Assembly (NCBI RefSeq): GCF_000177535.2
Contig: NC_015673.1
Location: 2,170,001 to 2,234,000 of the forward strand
Length of the DNA: 64,000 nt
DNA from: Corynebacterium resistens DSM 45100
Lineage (GTDB): Bacteria; Actinomycetota; Actinomycetes; Mycobacteriales; Mycobacteriaceae
Reading direction: 5' to 3'
Below are positions 42,642 to 54,611 of the stretch, in pieces (the stretch's first letter is position 1; each line of letters begins with the position of its first letter). A program made the translations under genes and the position numbers. A model generated the notes under the pieces. That model had not been told where the DNA came from. It saw nothing but the letters and a program-made list of their open reading frames with translations, and searched no databases.

Positions 42642-43856
42642 ATGTCTCCGGAGCATTCCATCGACATATTCCTTGGCCTAGACGTCAGCAGATCTGAACA
42701 CCACGCCTGCGCCTTAAACCGTGATGGCAACAAGGTCTTCGACAAACCGTTGCCTCAACTCGAATCCAAACTAGCAGGCGGTTTTCACCAGCTACAAAAG
42801 CTTGGCACCGTACTCGTAATCGTCGACCAACCCAACACCATCGGCGCACTACCGATTGCTGTAGCCCGGGACTGCAGTTGCGAAGTCGGATACCTGCCAG
42901 ATCTTGCGATGCGCAAAACTGCAGATCTCTATCCCGGACGTGCAAAAACAGACAAACGCGACGCATTCATCATCGCCGACACCGCCCGCACAATGCCCCA
43001 CACGCTACGTGCCGTCGACCGCAATGATGAGGTACTCTCCGCCCTAAAGATGCTGTCCGGCTTCGATGATGACATCGCCCGCGATTGCACTCGCACTGTC
43101 AATCGGCTTCGCAGTATCCTCACCCAGATCTACCCCAGCCTGGAACGAGTTTTTGCTGGTAGCACCCTGACTCGCACGCCGATCCTGAAATTATTGATCC
43201 ATTACAAGGGACCGCAGGGGCTCAAAAGAGCCGGATACCAACGAGTGTTGAACTGGATGATCAAGCGCACACGTAAAGACCCCACCCCGCTGGTAGACGA
43301 CATTTTTGCAGCGCTGAAAGCTCAAACAGTCACCGTGCCTGGAAGCGATGCCACCGAGTTAGTAATTCCTCAACTGGCAGCAAACATCAAGGCCCTCAAA
43401 GAGCAACGAAACACCATCGCTGAACAGGTTGAAGAAATACTCGCTGATATCCCTCTTTGTGAGGACTTGGATCGAAGATGCCCAGAGTCGGCTATCTTGA
43501 CCGCAGCGCAGATCCTCCTTGCGATCGGTGATGGCTCCGACTTCGATAGTGCTGGCCACTTAGCTGCTTATGCTGGAATAGCACCCGTCACTAGACGATC
43601 CGGTTCGTCGATCAGAGGTGAGTTCCCAGCACGGTCAGGCAATAAACGACTGAAAAACGCCTTATTCTACTCCGCATTCGCGGTTATCCGCAGCCACGAA
43701 CCGTCACGGCGGTATTACGAACGCAAACGCGCTGAAGGAAAACGCCACAACGCAGCAGTCATCTGCCTGGCACGACGCCGATGCAATGTCATCTACGCGA
43801 TGCTGAAAAACAAGGAGTTCTTCCGCGAAATCCCGCCACGCCCCGTCGCCGCATAA
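42642..43856 (+). CDS. IS110-family transposase (DEDD recombinase)
   Basis: The 404-residue protein has the N-terminal RuvC-like DEDD domain (FLGLDVSRSEHHACALNRDG; TDKRDAFIIADTART), a helical middle, and the C-terminal Tnp_2 (transposase 20-type) domain (LAAYAGIAPVTRRSGSSIRG, GNKRLKNALFYSAF). The length is standard and no stop or frameshift is seen, so it may be active. The ATG follows TAGGAGCTCATC, a good ribosome site. Confidence 0.95.
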   Translation: MSPEHSIDIFLGLDVSRSEHHACALNRDGNKVFDKPLPQLESKLAGGFHQLQKLGTVLVIVDQPNTIGALPIAVARDCSCEVGYLPDLAMRKTADLYPGRAKTDKRDAFIIADTARTMPHTLRAVDRNDEVLSALKMLSGFDDDIARDCTRTVNRLRSILTQIYPSLERVFAGSTLTRTPILKLLIHYKGPQGLKRAGYQRVLNWMIKRTRKDPTPLVDDIFAALKAQTVTVPGSDATELVIPQLAANIKALKEQRNTIAEQVEEILADIPLCEDLDRRCPESAILTAAQILLAIGDGSDFDSAGHLAAYAGIAPVTRRSGSSIRGEFPARSGNKRLKNALFYSAFAVIRSHEPSRRYYERKRAEGKRHNAAVICLARRRCNVIYAMLKNKEFFREIPPRPVAA

Positions 43857-44070: not shown

Positions 44071-44637
44071 TCAATCAAACGCCGGCAAGCCTTCATCGAG
44101 CACCTTGTACAGCGTCGTTCTACTAATGTTTAGCCGTTGAGCGATCTTGCTCTTCGGAACTCCCGCCTCTAAGTCCCGCTTAGCTACTTTCCAATCATCT
44201 TGGCTAATGCGCGATGTGCGGTAGACCCCTCGTTTACGCGCTTGCGCGATACCTTCTGCTTGGTGCTGCCTAATTGACTCCCTTTCGAATTCAGCCACGG
44301 TTCCTAAGACCGTGATGACCAATTTGCCACTGATAGCATCGGTGTTGAACTCAAGGGAATCGATGAACTTAACCGTCACCCCTTTATTTTTGAACTCCTC
44401 AAGCGACTGCAGAAGATCAAGCGAGTTTCTTGCAAGCCTGTCAACCGCTTTCACCTTAACGACGTCGCCCACACGTACAAATGCACGGAGAGCGTTCAAC
44501 TGATCTCGAGTGACCGTGTTTTTACCGCTGACTTTATCCATGTAGATCTTGTCTACGTCACTCAGCGCAGCTACTTGCCTGGCTTCATTCTGTGAAGAGG
44601 TCGAAACTCGAACATAATCAAAGACCTGTCCGCTCAT
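44071..44637 (-). CDS. Serine recombinase (resolvase/invertase family)
   Basis: The 188-residue protein has the catalytic Ser12 in DYVRVSTSSQNEARQ, the RLARNSLDLL block with catalytic Arg residues, GKLVITVLGTVAEFERESIR before the long E-helix, and a C-terminal helix-turn-helix (SKIAQRLNISRTTLYKVL). It is full length for Tn3-type resolvases. No transposase accompanies it, so it may be a stand-alone site-specific recombinase that helped place or shape the island. Lower GC than the flanking core genes. Confidence 0.93.
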   Translation of the reverse strand: MSGQVFDYVRVSTSSQNEARQVAALSDVDKIYMDKVSGKNTVTRDQLNALRAFVRVGDVVKVKAVDRLARNSLDLLQSLEEFKNKGVTVKFIDSLEFNTDAISGKLVITVLGTVAEFERESIRQHQAEGIAQARKRGVYRTSRISQDDWKVAKRDLEAGVPKSKIAQRLNISRTTLYKVLDEGLPAFD

Positions 44638-45487: not shown

Positions 45488-45613
45488 ATGTCCTACGCAC
45501 TAATTGACCTACAAAATCAAGATCACAATCAGGGCGAGCGAGCCCTGTGGTCTACCGTAAGCACTGGTTGCGAGCAGTCTTGGAGCACTAGCTCGGCCGG
45601 ATGCCACCACTAA
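45488..45613 (+). CDS. Class III lanthipeptide precursor (LanA), 41 residues
   Basis: The ATG is preceded by AAGGAG six nt upstream. The 41-residue peptide has a leader (about residues 1-18) containing ALIDLQ at 4-9, matching the LLDLQ-type motif recognised by class III synthetases. The Ser/Thr/Cys-rich core includes two perfect SxxSxxC motifs: STVSTGC at 22-28 and STSSAGC at 33-39, then HH. SxxSxxC is the labionin-forming motif of labyrinthopeptin-type peptides, so two labionins or methyl-lanthionine variants are predicted. The gene is directly upstream of the split synthetase. The cleavage point is not certain; core residues probably begin between Gly16 and Leu20. It is too short for routine gene callers. 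Confidence 0.88.
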   Translation: MSYALIDLQNQDHNQGERALWSTVSTGCEQSWSTSSAGCHH

Positions 45614-45657
45614 TTTGATACATGTCCTAAGCTCAAATTGCTTAGAATCGCCAGATT

Positions 45658-45687
45658 AAAAGCCATCGATGAAAATCGATGGCTTTT
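45658..45687 (+). terminator. Terminator/attenuator between precursor and synthetase genes
   Basis: AAAAGCCATCGAT (45658-45670), loop GAAA, and ATCGATGGCTTTT (45675-45687) form a perfect 13-bp stem ending in TTTT. Most transcripts should stop here, giving excess precursor mRNA, with read-through supplying the enzymes. It overlaps the first in-frame ATG of the synthetase frame (45679), which favours the later start at 45709. Confidence 0.92.
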
Positions 45688-45708
45688 CTCAGAAATACGA
45701 AGAACAAA

Positions 45709-47097
45709 ATGTTAAACTATTCGCTACTAACCAAACCGACTAGCCCCTTTTACGAACTTCCTAGCATAGACAAAAACAATAATTTTTTCGAGCTAAAGCA
45801 CCTACGCGCCAGCGATATCGTAGAAACAACACGTTGGTGGGTTTATATAAACAATATAGAAATTAACCGTGAAATTGGATGGAAAATCCACGTATCGGCA
45901 ACACTAAATAATGCGAGAGAAGTTTTGAACCTCGCCGGACAAGTTTGCTTGGAAATGGGGGTTCCCTTTAAATATATACCTACCATAGAAGAATTCAGAG
46001 CAAGAAACTCTAAGTACGCCGACCTAGCTTCAGCAGGAAAATTTATAACTGTTTACCCAGAAGAGTGTAATTTCGACGAAGTAAGTTATAAATTACGAGA
46101 TAAACTTAAAGGTTACAATGGGCCGGTTATCACTACCGACATACCCTCGGGTGACGCGCCTGTGTATTACCGTTATGGCCAATTTATTGACCGTTCGAGA
46201 GTGGGGCAATGGGGAGATGTATTAGCGGGAGCTTATGATAAGAACGGTCAGTGGACGGCAGACGAACGAAAATTCGTAACCATAGAGTCAATTAACGATT
46301 ATATTCCAAGAAGTGTGGCATTGGCATACAAAGACTTGACCGATAACGACCTAGAACTACCGTTTGATCCTGTAAATGTGCTACATAGATCCAATGCTGG
46401 AGGTGTATATGAAGCATACTATAAGGGCGAACGGTCGGTAGTGAAAGAAGCTAGGCCATATGCTGGCCTGGATGGCGCGGGCAATTATGGGATACTCAGA
46501 CTGCGTAACGAATGGAGAGCAATCAAAGCCCTAAACAATGTACCGGGCGTTGTAAAGGGCATTGACTTATTCGAATTCAGTGAACACCAATTCTTAGTGG
46601 AAGAATACATACCCGGTGACGACCTATATCAATTTTGTGCAAAGCGGTATCCTTTCTATGGCGACAATAAGATTAATACCTATTTCAATGAGGTAATTGA
46701 GATCATCGAAAAATCATTCGATGTTTTGCAAAAAATACATGAACAGAATGTCTTTCTGAATGACGTACATGTTAGAAACATCAAGTTAGACGAGTCAAAC
46801 AATCCTAGATTTATAGACTTGGAAAGTGCGACGTTTAGCGGGATTGATAAGGAACACCCGATTGCTACCCCCGGAGCCTATCTACCTCACATTTTAGAAA
46901 GTTGTGAGTATGATCGATCCGGGCTAGCGTTGGCCTTATTGCACATGCTTCATCCCTCAACGCCGTTAAGTCACAGAGATCCAAATGTCAATAAAAAGAG
47001 ACTGTATATAATCGGTGAAACGTTTGGACAACGAGCTGCAGCTAAAGTGAGGGAACTAATTAGTCTAATTAGCCCCCAGGTGCAAGCCACCATCTAA
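45709..47097 (+). CDS. Class III lanthipeptide synthetase, lyase-kinase part (LanKC without cyclase)
   Basis: From ATG 45709 the protein has 462 residues. The N-terminus (MLNYSLLTKPTSPFYELP) matches the usual start of LanKC enzymes; a start at 45679 would lie inside the terminator. Residues 1 to about 210 are the phosphoSer/Thr lyase domain (GWKIHVSATLNNAREVL at 57-73, SAGKFITVYP at 108-117, SGDAPVYYRYGQF at 147-159). Residues about 220-425 are the Ser/Thr kinase domain: Lys246 (VVKEARP), Glu268, hinge VEEYIPGDDL, catalytic loop NDVHVRNIKL with Asp352 and Asn357, and metal Asp370 (IDLES). The chain ends there. The cyclase domain normally fused at the C-terminus is encoded by the next gene. 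It phosphorylates and then eliminates Ser/Thr of the precursor. Confidence 0.9.
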   Translation: MLNYSLLTKPTSPFYELPSIDKNNNFFELKHLRASDIVETTRWWVYINNIEINREIGWKIHVSATLNNAREVLNLAGQVCLEMGVPFKYIPTIEEFRARNSKYADLASAGKFITVYPEECNFDEVSYKLRDKLKGYNGPVITTDIPSGDAPVYYRYGQFIDRSRVGQWGDVLAGAYDKNGQWTADERKFVTIESINDYIPRSVALAYKDLTDNDLELPFDPVNVLHRSNAGGVYEAYYKGERSVVKEARPYAGLDGAGNYGILRLRNEWRAIKALNNVPGVVKGIDLFEFSEHQFLVEEYIPGDDLYQFCAKRYPFYGDNKINTYFNEVIEIIEKSFDVLQKIHEQNVFLNDVHVRNIKLDESNNPRFIDLESATFSGIDKEHPIATPGAYLPHILESCEYDRSGLALALLHMLHPSTPLSHRDPNVNKKRLYIIGETFGQRAAAKVRELISLISPQVQATI

Positions 47098-47122
47098 TAG
47101 ACTGCAATCTAGGGAGAATAAT

Positions 47123-48253
47123 TTGTATAAACTTAACCATCATGTTATGCCAACTGATCCTTCAGAAACGCTTTTTCTCTTAAAACAGTCACTCTTAGGT
47201 GATGGTACCTCGGAGTGGGGTCTAGCTGCAGAGACGCTGTTCAAGCGGTCAGACCCTTCTGATCTGGGCCTAGTAAATGGCGCATTGGGCGTTGAGTCAA
47301 TATATTACGAAGATGACAAGAGAATTAAAAATTGGCTAACTCATCAATGTAGAAAAGAAATGTCTCTCAGATCTATCTTCACAGGTGAACCGCTGGGAAA
47401 TACAAAATTAAATTTGGTCGATTTGAGAAATAATCATAGTCTTGTGAAGAATATTTTAAATGAGAACTGGAGGAATTTGGGAGCTTTTAACGGAATCACT
47501 TCAATTATCACTACTGAAAGATTACTTGCCGGCCTGCGACTTCATTCAGTCGATGAGGCTCAGTTGGTTATTGGCTCAATAGAGCGTTGTATAATCGACA
47601 GGGTTGGTCCGATTGAAGGAGTTTCGAAACCAAATTTATTTTCTTTCAGCAATGGCGTTCTTGGGATGGTAGCCCTCGGCTGTAGTGAATACTCTTCCGA
47701 GGAATTCATTGATTGGTGTATTGAGTGCATATCGGTTATGCATATGAGTATGGAGATTCGTCCGGAGGGAGCGTTTGTTTCGGACGGCTCTCGGATGTTG
47801 CCCTACGTTGGGAATGGCACAGCGGGCGTACTGCTAGCTATGTTATCAATACCGTTGACATCGTGGCCAAGTGCTTGGTTCCATAAAATTGACAAGATGC
47901 TCGAAGCGATCGCACCGCGATTCACGTTGAATGGGGGCTTTGGTGAGGGCGCGGCGGGTCTAATTTATACTGCTGCAAGATGTGGAAACATTCTTAATCG
48001 AGATATTCCAAGGAATATGTTAGATTGTCTGGTGTCGGACATATTCATGACCCGTATTTTCAAGATTACCAGTCCTAATGATCGCGTAATGTTTCATCTA
48101 ATGTCTGATGGACAAATGGCTGTATCGCGTGATTTTTGGACGGGCACTGCAGGACTATGCGTTGCTTTGCAGGAGTACATTAATTTGGATACGGGAGGTC
48201 GCGTGAAGCCGGATTTGATTTCTAGTTTGTTTAATTTCGAGGTAGGTGTTTAA
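47123..48253 (+). CDS. Stand-alone LanC-like cyclase of the class III type
   Basis: The 376-residue protein starts at TTG 47123 with AGGGAG six nt upstream, 25 nt after the lyase-kinase stop. It shows the alpha-toroid repeat pattern of LanC-like domains (FSFSNGVLGMVALG, YVGNGTAGVLLAML, GGFGEGAAGLIYTA, FWTGTAGLCVALQEY). The zinc ligands of class I, II and IV cyclases (WCxG and CHG motifs) are absent, as in the cyclase domain of class III LanKC enzymes. It is read as the third domain of the synthetase encoded separately. With the lyase-kinase protein it should complete lanthionine/labionin ring formation. Confidence 0.82.
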   Translation: MYKLNHHVMPTDPSETLFLLKQSLLGDGTSEWGLAAETLFKRSDPSDLGLVNGALGVESIYYEDDKRIKNWLTHQCRKEMSLRSIFTGEPLGNTKLNLVDLRNNHSLVKNILNENWRNLGAFNGITSIITTERLLAGLRLHSVDEAQLVIGSIERCIIDRVGPIEGVSKPNLFSFSNGVLGMVALGCSEYSSEEFIDWCIECISVMHMSMEIRPEGAFVSDGSRMLPYVGNGTAGVLLAMLSIPLTSWPSAWFHKIDKMLEAIAPRFTLNGGFGEGAAGLIYTAARCGNILNRDIPRNMLDCLVSDIFMTRIFKITSPNDRVMFHLMSDGQMAVSRDFWTGTAGLCVALQEYINLDTGGRVKPDLISSLFNFEVGV

Positions 48254-48255
48254 AT

Positions 48256-48981
48256 ATGGATATACGTCTTGAATCTATATCAAAAAGCTATAATAAATTT
48301 GACGGTCCTGTAATTAATAATGTTTCGCACACATTTTCCTCTGGTAGTTTTACTGCTCTAATGGGCCGATCCGGTTCCGGAAAATCCACTCTACTCAATA
48401 TCATTTCCGGTCTTCTTACGCCTACCTCGGGGGATGTCCTGTACGGGGATAAAAGCCTCTATAGGTTAAACGATATGCAGAGGTCTTCTCTCAGAGCTCG
48501 GCGTACCGCGACAATTTTTCAAGACTATAATTTGTTAGAATTTCTTTCAGTCGAAGAGAATATTTTATTGGCGCAACGTATAAACGGGAAAGCCAAAAAT
48601 TCAATGTCTCCCCACGAGGCGCTTAGAATGGTCGGGCTTGAGGGGTATGAGAAAAAGATGCCGAATGAGATATCTGGTGGCCAAAAACAACGCGTAGCTA
48701 TTGCTCGCGCTATTTCTGTACGTCCGTCTGTAATATTTGCTGACGAGCCGACTGGTGCCCTAGATGAAAGCAATTCTAAGATCGTTGTAGATCTACTGAG
48801 GTCGGTTGCCCAAAATAACGTAACGGTCGTGATGGTCACTCACGATCCCTACATTGCAGCCGAGGCTCACTGTGTTTTGCAGCTTAGGGACGGTAGTATT
48901 ACAAATATTTTAAATAGTCCGACGCCGAAATCCATCTTGGAAGCCATGCGGTCAACCTCTAATAATGTCAAGGAGATGTGA
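48256..48981 (+). CDS. ABC transporter ATP-binding protein (lanthipeptide export or immunity)
   Basis: The 241-residue ATPase has Walker A GRSGSGKST, Q-loop FQDYNLLEF, signature ISGGQKQRVAIARA, Walker B VIFADEPTGALDES and the H-loop VMVTHDP. It is of the MacB/LolD type that partners with FtsX-like permeases. It starts 2 nt after the cyclase stop, and its own stop overlaps the permease start, so all four genes form one operon. It is likely to export the modified peptide or protect the producer. Confidence 0.93.
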   Translation: MDIRLESISKSYNKFDGPVINNVSHTFSSGSFTALMGRSGSGKSTLLNIISGLLTPTSGDVLYGDKSLYRLNDMQRSSLRARRTATIFQDYNLLEFLSVEENILLAQRINGKAKNSMSPHEALRMVGLEGYEKKMPNEISGGQKQRVAIARAISVRPSVIFADEPTGALDESNSKIVVDLLRSVAQNNVTVVMVTHDPYIAAEAHCVLQLRDGSITNILNSPTPKSILEAMRSTSNNVKEM

Positions 48982-50816
48982 GCATGCTAACGGTATCAAA
49001 GCTATTATGGCGCGGGCATCGTTCGTCCGTATCATCCCTGGTTGTTATTCTAGTTGCGTTGGTTGCTTGTATTAGTGGAATAGTAAGTGTTGCCATAAAT
49101 TCCTCTGAGAAGGCCGGCAGGCTAAAGACCCAAGGCGCTATAACGACCGAGGTGGTGAAGCGCGTAAACACTCTTGACGGGATCTCCGTTTTTACAACAC
49201 TTGTTGCCTCAATCGCGATAGTTGTAGCTTTACTTATGCTTTCGGCGATAACTCAGTTTACTATAGCCTCGTCTGCGCCTACCATGCGCTCTTTAAGGAC
49301 TTATGGGGTTTCGCGTTTTCAGGCTCGGAGTAGTTATTTAGTTATTATCAGTTTGGCATCATTGTTCGCTTTAGTGGTTGGAGTATTGCTCAGCCCGCTT
49401 GCGGCCTCCGGTCAAAAGTTTATTCTTGCGCGGACAGGTTTAAATGTTGATGACGTAAGCACTGGTGCGTCATTTTCTACCATTTGTTACGTTTCCGCTT
49501 TTATTTGGGTGTTTGTTTCTGTCGTTGCCTTATTGAGTTCAAACCAGGTTTGTTCTCTTGAGCCCCCCTCTGCAAACAAAAAACGAACTCCGGCCTTCGT
49601 TCGTCGTTTAGCTAGGTGTGTTCTTTTTGTCGCTTTCTCCGTCGCCTTGGCAGCGATCCTTCGAGTTGATGTTAATATGGAAAATATCAACCAGGTCACC
49701 TTCGGCGCATTGTTCACCTCCCTTATCGCCCTATGGCTCGCGTTCCCCTGGATCCTCAAGGGCTTTGCAAGGATATTGAAACGGGCTGGCGATGTGGGTT
49801 TAGCCTTGGGGGGCTTGATTTTCCGGAATGCAAATCGTGTTAGTGCTATCGCCTTAATTTCCGCGCTGTTGCTAGGTTTAGGGGGAACCAGTGCTATTTT
49901 AACTCTCGCTTCGTCAACCGCCGGAAAGTTTTTAGCAATGAATTCTATTTCCGCTGACGCGGTGAGTGATAAAGAAGTAAAAAGCTCTTCCGCCGATATT
50001 CATTTGTCACCTCTGGACTTCGATGGTGGCTGGATTTATAAAGATCAGGATGCGAAACAGGCTCCGGTGTTGTTATTCGATCCTTCTGTGATTGCTGGGA
50101 TGCTCGCGTCCGACACCATAGTTGATGGGGATTTGCAGAGGGTTGGGCGAGACGACGTCGTCGCTGATGCGAAACGTTATAAAATCGGTGATAAAATTGA
50201 AATCGCCAATGATGCTGGTGCCTCTCGTGAACTACGTGTTGTGGCCTTAGCTAATTCTAACTCTTTGTTGGGTGGTTCTTTTGGCGCAGATGCTAGTTCT
50301 TTTGTCCCCAGTAGTGATTCTCAGGTTAGTCACCGTACCTACGCGACAGCATCGGGTGGCTACGATCGCGTCTCCCGTGCCTTACCGGATGGCGAATGGC
50401 AAACAATTCCGGAATATGTAGAGGGAGATTTACGGTCTGTCCAAGAGTCACAAAGGGCTTCTGTCTTCGCGATGATTGGCGGTGTTGCAGTGGTCGCCTT
50501 TTGTGGGATGATGTATAGCGTTGTTGGATTTTCAGTTGATCTAAGGCCCGTTTCGGGTTCCCTAAGACGAGTCGGAATGGGCACTCGAGCTCGGTATCTT
50601 CTATTCGTATTGATCGGGCTTATAATCGCTGGCGGGTCGGCCGTAATGGCTGGTGCTGGGTTGGTAGCCGCTCTATCCCAGGTTGCAGACGTGTTTGGAT
50701 CCTTAGGTATTACTTATCCTTTAGATATTCCCTGGGGATTACTCTCCGGTATCTGGTTGGTATCTGGTGTTTTGACGTTGATTGGAATGATTGCTGGGCA
50801 GAAGAAGTACGCATAA
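48978..50816 (+). CDS. FtsX/MacB-type ABC permease
   Basis: The 612-residue permease has an N-terminal helix (about 18-38), a three-helix FtsX unit near 70-190, two further helices near 205-260, one near 285-305, a large extracytoplasmic domain (about 310-470) and a C-terminal FtsX unit (about 485-605). GTG 48978 overlaps the ATPase stop; an ATG two codons later (48984) is also possible, both after AAGGAG. Such permeases in class III clusters of actinobacteria act in export or immunity. It closes the synthetase operon. Confidence 0.9.
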   Translation: MSMLTVSKLLWRGHRSSVSSLVVILVALVACISGIVSVAINSSEKAGRLKTQGAITTEVVKRVNTLDGISVFTTLVASIAIVVALLMLSAITQFTIASSAPTMRSLRTYGVSRFQARSSYLVIISLASLFALVVGVLLSPLAASGQKFILARTGLNVDDVSTGASFSTICYVSAFIWVFVSVVALLSSNQVCSLEPPSANKKRTPAFVRRLARCVLFVAFSVALAAILRVDVNMENINQVTFGALFTSLIALWLAFPWILKGFARILKRAGDVGLALGGLIFRNANRVSAIALISALLLGLGGTSAILTLASSTAGKFLAMNSISADAVSDKEVKSSSADIHLSPLDFDGGWIYKDQDAKQAPVLLFDPSVIAGMLASDTIVDGDLQRVGRDDVVADAKRYKIGDKIEIANDAGASRELRVVALANSNSLLGGSFGADASSFVPSSDSQVSHRTYATASGGYDRVSRALPDGEWQTIPEYVEGDLRSVQESQRASVFAMIGGVAVVAFCGMMYSVVGFSVDLRPVSGSLRRVGMGTRARYLLFVLIGLIIAGGSAVMAGAGLVAALSQVADVFGSLGITYPLDIPWGLLSGIWLVSGVLTLIGMIAGQKKYA

Positions 50817-50922: not shown

Positions 50923-51135
50923 TTGATATCGGATATCTTTAAATTCGGTGCAGGTTTACCTAATTTTATTTCCGGTTTGGTTTCTAGTTTTGTTGATGCG
51001 CTCAGCGCTTATCTTGGTGGCCTCCTTGTGCAGTTCGTTAGTCGATGCCGTTTTGCCGTAATCATGGAAACATTGCACATGACGGTATTACTATCTGTTT
51101 TCGAAGCGGCTGTGTTGATGTGCAACCATGGCTAA
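50923..51135 (+). CDS. Candidate small hydrophobic peptide (low confidence)
   Basis: A TTG-initiated frame of 70 codons begins ISDIFKFGAGLPNFISGLVS, then SFVDALSAYLGGLLVQF, an amphipathic/hydrophobic stretch like small toxins, porin peptides or immunity peptides. The C-terminal half looks random. No good ribosome site is seen. It may be a remnant. Confidence 0.25.
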   Translation: MISDIFKFGAGLPNFISGLVSSFVDALSAYLGGLLVQFVSRCRFAVIMETLHMTVLLSVFEAAVLMCNHG

Positions 51136-52847: not shown

Positions 52848-54611
52848 ATGCTAGCGGAACAAGATCCGGTGAATTGCAATATACTTGCTCCTATGTCATC
52901 AACCTCTTCGCAAAAAGCGTTTCGAACTTTGTTACTTATGCTGGGAAAGCATAAATTGGATTTGTTCGTTGGCCTGGTATTATCAATTCTCGGCTCCATC
53001 GTCCAGTTGACCCAACCACTGGTCGTAAACAAAATGCTTCAGCAGATCGGAAGTACTTCAATAACGCCGAAAGTCGCACTGTTGGTAGTGCTGCTCTTTA
53101 TCGGTGCGATTGCTGGAGGGTTGAAAACCTACGTATTAACGCGCACCGCTGAGAGATCTGTTTATGTAACACGTCAACAGTTGATTGCGCGATTACTGCG
53201 ACTACCAATTTCTTCGTTCAATACCTTGCGTACAGGAGACTTGGTAAGTCGTTTGGGGTCAGACACCACGCTAATTCGAGCTGCGTTTACGGGGGGCTTG
53301 GTGGATTCGATGGCCAGTATCTTCGCGGTGGTTGGTGCAGTTGTCTTCATGGCTGTGTTGGACCCGATTCTTCTTCTAGTAGTGATAGTTGTACTGTCAG
53401 TGACTGTCGGAATCGTGATTGTGGCATCGGCCAGAATCCAACTTTTCACGAAGCGCTTACAAACTGCTGTAGGTGATTTGGGGGCAGATATGGAACGTTC
53501 ACTGGTAGCTGTACGAACCTTGCGAGCGTTAAATGCGGAGAATGAAGTTGAGCGTGAGCTAGTCGGGCAGGCAGATCGGGCATGGCGCCAAGGGAATAAA
53601 GTTGCACGATTTGAGGGGATGCTCGATCCACTTGTATTTGTGGCTTTACAACTGTGTTTCCTCTTTGTGCTGGGAGTGGGGGGAGTACGGGTGGCCGCAG
53701 GGAACATGCAGCTGGGTGAATTACTGGCTTTTATTATGTATCTGTTCACTCTCGCCATGCCGATAGGGTTGTTGTTCGGTGCGATCACCACCATCCGTTC
53801 GGCTATGGGAGCAGTGGAGAGAGTTAATGAAGTGTTGGCATTAGATGTGGAGGTTAATTCTGGACCTGATATTTCTCCGGCTTCAGAACTAGAGTTTCGC
53901 AACGTGTGCTTCGCCTATGATCAAGAGGAACCTACACCTACCGTAAAGTCTCTCACCTTTACTATTCAGCCGGGTAGTAAAGTAGCGATTGTGGGGCCAA
54001 GTGGTTCTGGGAAGTCTACTACTTTAGCCCTGATTCAACGATTTTATGACCCTAATGATGGGCAGATCTTGTTGGGTGGGCAGAATATTAGTGAGTATAG
54101 TCGTACCTCTCTTCGCAGGATTGTTGGTTTTCTGGAACAAGAAGCATCGATTCTTGCCGGCACTGTGCGGGAGAATTTAAAGCTTGGTGCTCGAGAAGCT
54201 ACCGATGTTCAGTGCTGGGAAGTCCTTCGTAAGGTAGGGTTAGAGGAAAAGTTTCAGCATATTAAGGGTTTGGATACGAAGTTGGGGGAGCGAGGCATTA
54301 GTTTGTCTGGAGGGCAACGTCAGCGGCTAGCTCTAGCTAGGACACTTCTGCTTGATACTCCTATTCTGCTTATGGACGAGCCTACGAGTGCTGTAGATTC
54401 TTACAATGAAAAGCTCATTTTGAGTACTATCTCAGAACAATGTCACGGTCGCACGATTGTGATGGTTGCGCACCGACTGTCAACAGTAATAGATGCCGAC
54501 CAAATTCTGGTAATGAATCAGGGAAGTATCGTGTCGAGTGGAACGCATTCAGAGTTGATGGATAACTGTCCACTATATCGCGACCTTGCTAAAAGACAAT
54601 CATTAGCTTGA
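52848..54611 (+). CDS. ABC exporter, fused membrane and ATPase domains
   Basis: The 587-residue half-transporter has a six-helix membrane domain (about 30-320) followed by a nucleotide-binding domain: Walker A GPSGSGKST, signature [15 protein letters not shown], Walker B ILLMDEPTSAVD and the H-loop MVAHRLS. There is no N-terminal C39 peptidase, so it would not cleave a leader. CAGGGGGGG before ATG 52848 supports the start; a second ATG at residue 16 lacks a good site. It probably homodimerises. It is separate from the lanthipeptide operon but on the same strand in the island, so it may export the peptide, give self-resistance, or be unrelated. Confidence 0.92.
   Translation: MLAEQDPVNCNILAPMSSTSSQKAFRTLLLMLGKHKLDLFVGLVLSILGSIVQLTQPLVVNKMLQQIGSTSITPKVALLVVLLFIGAIAGGLKTYVLTRTAERSVYVTRQQLIARLLRLPISSFNTLRTGDLVSRLGSDTTLIRAAFTGGLVDSMASIFAVVGAVVFMAVLDPILLLVVIVVLSVTVGIVIVASARIQLFTKRLQTAVGDLGADMERSLVAVRTLRALNAENEVERELVGQADRAWRQGNKVARFEGMLDPLVFVALQLCFLFVLGVGGVRVAAGNMQLGELLAFIMYLFTLAMPIGLLFGAITTIRSAMGAVERVNEVLALDVEVNSGPDISPASELEFRNVCFAYDQEEPTPTVKSLTFTIQPGSKVAIVGPSGSGKSTTLALIQRFYDPNDGQILLGGQNISEYSRTSLRRIVGFLEQEASILAGTVRENLKLGAREATDVQCWEVLRKVGLEEKFQHIKGLDTKLGERGISLSGGQRQRLALARTLLLDTPILLMDEPTSAVDSYNEKLILSTISEQCHGRTIVMVAHRLSTVIDADQILVMNQGSIVSSGTHSELMDNCPLYRDLAKRQSLA

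What the first reader, a model, noticed from the sequence alone, without database searches (positions are those of the whole stretch)
45488..50816. Class III lanthipeptide cluster with a split synthetase
Gene order is precursor, lyase-kinase protein, stand-alone cyclase, ABC ATPase, FtsX permease, in one operon-like block. Class III systems normally have a single lyase-kinase-cyclase enzyme (LanKC). Here the cyclase domain is a separate gene with its own ribosome site, 25 nt after a clean stop that follows the kinase domain. This may be a distinct subclass in corynebacteria or a fission of a standard LanKC that has stayed functional.
Basis: partly seen in the sequence, partly recalled or inferred. 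Interest (0 to 1): 0.9.

Follow-up and report, generated by a model that had tools for sequence, protein, structure and literature searches.

The report
Natural two-protein class III lanthipeptide synthetase
A bacterium carries a small gene set for a ring-bearing peptide in which the usual one-piece, three-part enzyme is made as two separate proteins, and relatives suggest that this break is an inherited arrangement and not a mistake.

Summary
A 41-residue class III-type precursor (IDLQ leader, two SxxSxxC units) is followed by a lyase-kinase protein, a stand-alone class III-type cyclase, an ABC ATPase and an FtsX-like permease, in a low-GC island. Against the 833-position LanKC model the lyase-kinase covers 6-464 and the cyclase 523-833, so the break lies at the kinase/cyclase junction. 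The eight lyase residues listed for ThurKC and its main kinase residues are kept. A base error is unlikely: three further lyase-kinases (56-59% identical) stop within one residue of the same column, and three further stand-alone cyclases are 44-46% identical. None of 241 other genomes of the genus has the split; five intact genes there are single-chain. In a class survey, three genomes carry a second split system with precursors upstream; the lyase-kinase tree rejects one origin for both (AU p = 0.00018). ThurKC cut at the same junction in the laboratory works in trans only when both parts are present (published). I read this as a working split class III synthetase, probably one of two independent fissions. 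Activity, product and complex are untested. Caveat: the cyclase frame overlaps the kinase end at a C5 run, so a +1 shift could in principle make a fusion.

The parts
45488..45613 (+). Precursor peptide, 41 aa: IDLQ leader motif, core units STVSTGC (residues 22-28) and STSSAGC (33-39)
   Evidence: only ORF of its kind in the window; a database copy differs at one leader residue (P0047). The NCBIfam class III precursor model gives only 7.1 bits against a cut-off of 22.
45658..45687 (+). Hairpin (13 bp, 4-nt loop) between precursor and enzyme genes; possible attenuator or processing site
   Evidence: The 61-nt segment 45645-45705 folds at -20.6 kcal/mol, z -5.46, 0 of 200 shuffles as good. The terminator scan did not list it.
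45709..47097 (+). Lyase-kinase half of the split LanKC (462 aa; the longest ORF begins at 45679)
   Evidence: RamC_N and Pkinase; LanKC model 6-464/833, 338 bits against a cut-off of 575; catalytic residues; start by relatives
47123..48253 (+). Stand-alone class III-type cyclase (376 aa, TTG start)
   Evidence: LanKC model 523-833/833, E 2.7e-14, 52.5 bits against a cut-off of 575; profile-profile match to the cyclase domains of 19 fused LanKC, probability 98.4%, 298 columns; former zinc positions Gly230, Gly274, Glu275
48256..48981 (+). ABC transporter ATPase
   Evidence: ABC_tran 1.2e-33; best NCBIfam subfamily match L_ocin_972_ABC (bacteriocin export), 190.7 bits, below its cut-off of 254.85
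48978..50816 (+). FtsX-like permease, ten predicted hydrophobic segments; partner of the ATPase
   Evidence: FtsX E 0.0036, 17.8 bits, below its cut-off of 25.5; segments
52848..54611 (+). ABC exporter (membrane and ATPase domains on one chain), 2 kb downstream; possible exporter of the peptide (membership in the cluster inferred only)
   Evidence: ABC_membrane 5e-41 and ABC_tran 2.6e-34; inside the low-GC island

Best explanation
A class III-type lanthipeptide cluster, probably gained horizontally, whose three-domain synthetase is made as two proteins after an ancestral gene fission at the kinase/cyclase linker. Proposed working: the lyase-kinase binds the leader, phosphorylates core Ser residues and removes the phosphate (inferred from conserved residues); the separate, zinc-free cyclase acts in trans, docking transiently on the lyase-kinase, and joins each Cys to dehydrated Ser of its SxxSxxC unit as lanthionine or labionin (inferred); the ABC ATPase/permease pair, perhaps with the ABC exporter downstream, exports the peptide or protects the producer (inferred); the leader is removed by a protease outside the cluster (inferred). 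Shown here: gene structure, domain identity, residue conservation, separate proteins in relatives, and a second split lineage.
For: Domain halves meet at the LanKC junction. Relatives P0002-P0004 (56-59%) end within one residue of the same column, with a similar C-terminus past the C5 run; P0044-P0046 (44-46%) and P0043 (93%) are stand-alone cyclases. All 8 lyase residues that PMC10604976 lists, and kinase Lys257, Glu279, Asp364, the D-x-E motif and Thr399, are kept in the window and in each relative that covers them. The cyclase matches fused LanKC cyclase domains. A second lineage, G733/G767/G939, is split at the same junction with precursors upstream. ThurKC cut between residues 486 and 487 modified a truncated precursor when lyase-kinase and cyclase were mixed, and not with lyase-kinase alone (PMC10604976 section 14).
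Confidence: 0.8

Rival explanations
1. A single-chain LanKC that only looks split through a sequencing error, or a recent disabling frameshift, in the C5 run at 47073-47077.
For: The cyclase frame is +1 to the kinase frame and is open from 47069, overlapping the kinase end; the intact LanKC genes found elsewhere in the genus are single-chain.
Against: P0002-P0004 end within one residue of the same column and share the I-S-x-x-[VI]-x-x-T-[VI] C-terminus that lies past the C5 run in the window; four other stand-alone cyclases are known; there is a Shine-Dalgarno-like AGGGAG before the TTG. In the survey two other short frames that looked like damage broke inside the kinase domain, not at the junction (G656, G865).
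Confidence: 0.05
2. Programmed +1 frameshifting at the C5 run makes some fused LanKC besides the two separate proteins.
For: Open +1 frame of 18 codons reaching into the cyclase start, with a C5 run inside the overlap.
Against: The overlap is short and may be chance; the frame-0 C-terminus is conserved and the cyclase has its own start signal. The DNA of the relatives could not be read, so conservation of the overlap is untested.
Confidence: 0.07
3. The lyase-kinase works but the separate cyclase no longer makes rings and serves only as a docking partner that enables dehydration.
For: The cyclase is highly divergent and the NisC-type catalytic and zinc positions are replaced; in ThurKC the cyclase part is needed for dehydration (PMC10604976 section 14).
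Against: Class III cyclases lack the zinc ligands anyway (PMC10604976); Glu275, invariant in 5 of 5, stands where ThurKC has Asp771, which is needed for cyclisation; both Cys are kept in P0047.
Confidence: 0.08

Closest known systems
Class III lanthipeptide synthetase LanKC (ThurKC, SalKC, PneKC, CurKC)
   Same: Same domain order lyase, kinase, zinc-free cyclase; catalytic residues kept; precursor with leader motif and SxxSxxC units; best PDB sequence matches of both halves
   Different: Two proteins in place of one; cyclase far diverged; Leu for Phe in the DFE motif and Gly-Glu for Phe-Asp at 770-771
Laboratory-split ThurKC (lyase-kinase 1-486 plus cyclase 487-872; PMC10604976 section 14)
   Same: Cut at the same junction; the two pieces act in trans
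   Different: Artificial; here the break is encoded in the genome and shared with relatives
Second natural split lineage found here (G733, G767, G939)
   Same: Precursor with two SxxSxxC units, lyase-kinase, then cyclase in separate genes
   Different: Separate clade on the lyase-kinase tree (AU p 0.00018); cyclase over the Pfam LANC_like cut-off
Corynebacterial LanKC cluster of G238 (L042)
   Same: LanKC followed by ABC ATPase (38% identical over 195 aa) and a permease with ten hydrophobic segments, and a two-unit precursor ORF upstream
   Different: LanKC is one chain of 843 aa; the permeases are barely alike by BLAST (E 0.010 over 43 aa)
Split LanB of class I lanthipeptides (pinensin type; PMC7268733 and PMC7296275, passages)
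   Same: A lanthipeptide enzyme normally on one chain is divided between two genes
   Different: Other chemistry (glutamylation and elimination) and another division

Membership tests
Class III lanthipeptide synthetase (LanKC) | Lyase and kinase domains with their catalytic residues | tested here: met
   RamC_N, Pkinase; 8 of 8 lyase residues and the main kinase residues
Class III lanthipeptide synthetase (LanKC) | LanC-like cyclase without zinc ligands | tested here: met
   LanKC model 523-833 and no LanL or LanM match; Gly230, Gly274, Glu275 at the zinc positions. Pfam LANC_like is below cut-off.
Class III lanthipeptide synthetase (LanKC) | All three domains on one polypeptide | tested here: not met
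   Two ORFs with a 25-nt gap
Class III lanthipeptide synthetase (LanKC) | Score over the NCBIfam equivalog cut-off (575 bits) | tested here: not met
   338 and 52.5 bits for the two proteins
Class III lanthipeptide synthetase (LanKC) | Precursor with [ILVMF]xLQ-type leader and SxxSx(2-5)C units (motifs recalled) | tested here: met
   the NCBIfam precursor model is not reached (7.1 against 22 bits)
Class III lanthipeptide synthetase (LanKC) | Makes dehydrated residues and lanthionine or labionin rings | not testable with these tools
   Needs mass spectrometry
Class IV synthetase (LanL) | Zinc-binding LanC-type cyclase (ligands as in NisC) | tested here: not met
   Zinc positions are Gly, Gly, Glu; the LanL model scores 225.6 against 338 for LanKC on the lyase-kinase and does not match the cyclase
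Class V lanthipeptide system (lexapeptide type; definition recalled) | Kinase and HopA1-type lyase as separate proteins, no LanKC-type cyclase | tested here: not met
   Lyase (RamC_N) and kinase are on one chain and a LanKC-type cyclase is present

The most novel reading that the evidence does not exclude
Class III synthetases have been divided at the kinase/cyclase linker at least twice in nature, giving inherited two-protein systems with a dissociable cyclase; the window lineage has diverged so far that rules asking for a kinase and a LanC domain on one chain do not see it, and its free cyclase may have changed its catalytic acid (Glu for Asp) and its way of forming rings.
Probability: 0.55. 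Interest if true: 0.72.

Novelty: new variant of a known kind. Interest (0 to 1): 0.62.

Why it matters
The ThurKC study left open why its lyase-kinase and cyclase act together in trans although no stable complex was seen (PMC10604976 section 14). Natural split enzymes would make that directly testable: two separate proteins have been kept that must find each other. They also let the cyclase be left out, swapped or added late, so the order of dehydration and ring formation can be studied.

Tried and rejected
Considered and rejected: base error or pseudogene (both protein ends alike among relatives). Class IV and class V (model scores and domain layout). Anti-phage system: PADLOC gives weak kinase-domain matches for the lyase-kinase (best 3.9e-09), none for the cyclase or permease, and general ABC-ATPase matches (mad3, 4.2e-35 and 1.6e-30) for the two ATPases. 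One common origin with the second split lineage: rejected on the lyase-kinase tree, only marginally on the cyclase tree (p-AU 0.048, with a long-branch warning).

Led nowhere or left open: viral contigs, 59 stretches but no relative. Plasmids: 77 records match the lyase-kinase; of the 20 listed 18 are annotated LanKC and 2 have no annotation. 12 records match the cyclase: 7 LanKC, 1 kinase/LanC, 3 'LanC family protein' (Lactobacillus gasseri, not examined), 1 without annotation. The search with the precursor found only a near-copy. Fold models are weak: lyase-kinase pLDDT 57.5, pTM 0.50, with LanKC-type enzymes as its best 22 PDB matches; cyclase pLDDT 65.7, pTM 0.71, no Foldseek match at E <= 0.001. 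Promoter and terminator scans were at chance level. Of the 8 short RamC_N frames of the class survey, the 134-residue one in G790 was not examined. Around G733, 2 of 12 genomes of the genus and the same 2 of 22 of the order have the split. The script that screened loci for two-unit ORFs also gave one probable chance hit each in L074 and L040, and none in L039.

Full report
1. The observation. The precursor is MSYALIDLQNQDHNQGERALWSTVSTGCEQSWSTSSAGCHH: an IDLQ leader motif and two SxxSxxC units. It is the only ORF of 30-110 aa in the window with two such units (pattern SxxSx(2-5)C twice); simulated sequence of the island's composition gives 0.32 per 64 kb, and 0.015 with an early [ILVMF]xLQ (200 simulations; pattern chosen after the fact). 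The first enzyme has RamC_N (1.2e-40) and protein kinase (1.2e-09) domains and matches LanKC model positions 6-464 of 833. The second matches positions 523-833 of that model, and no other NCBIfam model at E <= 10. Its match to the cyclase domains of 19 fused LanKC is 98.4% probable over 298 columns.

2. Corrections. ATG 45679 lies in the 3' arm of a 13-bp hairpin (segment -20.6 kcal/mol, z -5.46). P0002 and P0003, which have a full N-terminus, start at the column of ATG 45709. So the enzyme is probably 462 aa, and the hairpin may act as an attenuator between precursor and enzyme genes; the terminator scan did not list it. The cyclase frame is +1 to the kinase frame and open from 47069, with a C5 run at 47073-47077: a single indel there would fuse the two, so the error reading had to be tested.

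3. Error or inheritance. The search with the lyase-kinase gave 41 proteins; the first four are the window's own cluster and P0002-P0004, at 59, 56 and 58% identity (P0004 lacks the N-terminal third). All end within one residue of the window's stop, and the end past the C5 run is alike: ISPQVQATI, ISPHIYNTVV, ISKDVYDTVR, ISPHVYETVK. The search with the cyclase gave 5 proteins: the window's own cluster, one 93% and three 44-46% identical, all stand-alone at 364-391 aa. P0004 and P0044 share the longest-contig length 47,556, which suggests one contig; I could not open it. Both searches consider only lengths of 0.55-1.75 times the query and scored only the candidates sharing most words, so they favour separate proteins; genome searches, without a length limit, were run as a counterweight.

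4. Genomes. In the genus 7 of 242 genomes match the lyase-kinase, the window's included. Four have single-chain LanKC (G218, G094, G238, and G027 with two: 831-905 aa), G017 has a 536-aa truncated gene whose first 40 residues equal G218's, and G150 a fragment. In the family 11 of 401 match the cyclase profile; the ten others lie in open frames of 861-918 aa. Of 18 loci from named genomes 15 are closed single ORFs of 717-952 aa and 3 run off the contig. Fused is the rule. In G238 a fused LanKC is followed by an ABC ATPase (38% identical over 195 aa) and a permease with ten hydrophobic segments like the window's, though barely alike by BLAST. That fits fission from a fused ancestor, but the trees do not resolve which fused enzyme is the sister.

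5. A second split lineage. A RamC_N survey of the class found 117 matches in 78 of 394 genomes (summed). Eight lie in frames under 600 aa: the window's (474), G767, G733 and G939 (513-518), G656, G865, G834 and G790. G656 and G865 break inside the kinase part with overlapping frames, as errors or damage would; G834 is a fragment; G790 was not examined. G767, G733 and G939 break at the junction (model 458-465 | 487-496), each with a separate cyclase of 391-399 aa adjoining or slightly overlapping, and each with a small ORF upstream bearing two SxxSxxC units, for instance SGVSDHC and STFSNHC. On the lyase-kinase tree of 31 rows the window lineage (100/100) and this one (100/99) are separate; holding them together costs 52.2 log units, p-AU 0.00018. 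The cyclase tree agrees but weakly (p-AU 0.048), with a warning that long branches meet.

6. Mechanism. PMC10604976 (passages) lists eight lyase residues of ThurKC (several tested by mutation): all eight are kept in the window and in each relative that covers them, as are kinase Lys257, Glu279, Asp364, Asp382, Glu384 and Thr399. The numbering offset of +3 is mine; by it the paper's Asn366 is Gln, and the conserved Asn is 369. Leu replaces Phe in the DFE motif. Of ten mapped leader-contact residues Tyr243, Glu258, Phe306, Phe194 and Leu225 are kept, Ile230 is Val, and Arg112, Tyr148, Phe236 and Trp302 differ. In the cyclase the former zinc positions are Gly230, Gly274 and Glu275, the last invariant in all five; ThurKC has Phe770-Asp771 at the latter two, needed for cyclisation. 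Section 14 of that paper (read in full) cut ThurKC between 486 and 487: lyase-kinase alone gave no modification, lyase-kinase plus cyclase did, and no stable complex was seen; [quoted passage not shown] The natural break is at that junction. I infer a transient two-protein enzyme acting on the leader-bound peptide.

7. Setting. In 1-kb windows GC is 0.40-0.50 from about 44 to 55.5 kb against 0.52-0.60 on either side within 38-63 kb. An IS110-like transposase ORF (42642-43856) and a resolvase-like ORF (44071-44637) stand at the left edge (named by reading, not searched). Horizontal gain is likely. No protease ORF was recognised in the cluster; the genome holds one prolyl oligopeptidase-type gene elsewhere, as does the C. 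glutamicum control, a family that (recalled) matures some class III peptides.

8. Literature. Seven searches of the held open-access library were judged by title and abstract start, and five papers by passages or a section. Phrases such as 'split LanKC' occur in 0 papers. 'Split' in the passages seen of PMC7268733 and PMC7296275 referred to LanB or to numbers of clusters. Most subscription papers are not held, so this is no proof of absence. PMC12188740 (passages) reports six lanthipeptide clusters in respiratory Corynebacterium; 'class III' does not occur in its main text.

9. Verdict. A real and, by its relatives, inherited split class III-type synthetase; a new variant of a known kind; function inferred.

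Noticed in passing
   Followed up: partly
window 45658-45687: Strong hairpin between precursor and lyase-kinase genes that contains the first ATG of the longest ORF.
   Followed up: partly
window 50923-51135: ORF of 70 aa with a hydrophobic, amphipathic-looking first half between the permease and the ABC exporter; no Pfam match.
   Followed up: no
window 42642-43856 and 44071-44637: IS110-like transposase ORF and resolvase-like ORF at the left edge of the low-GC island (names by reading).
   Followed up: no
L042 1417-8078 (G238): Corynebacterial cluster with a two-unit precursor ORF, ABC exporter, fused LanKC, ABC ATPase and permease.
   Followed up: partly
L038 8280-9890 (G017): LanKC truncated at 536 aa, matching model positions 5-530, next to repeated ORFs that look like an insertion element; G218 has the full-length gene.
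   Followed up: partly
P0018, P0020, P0021, P0028, P0033: Database proteins of 442-502 aa with lyase and kinase domains and no LanC domain; P0028 groups with the second split lineage, so some may belong to further split systems, others may be partial genes.
   Followed up: partly
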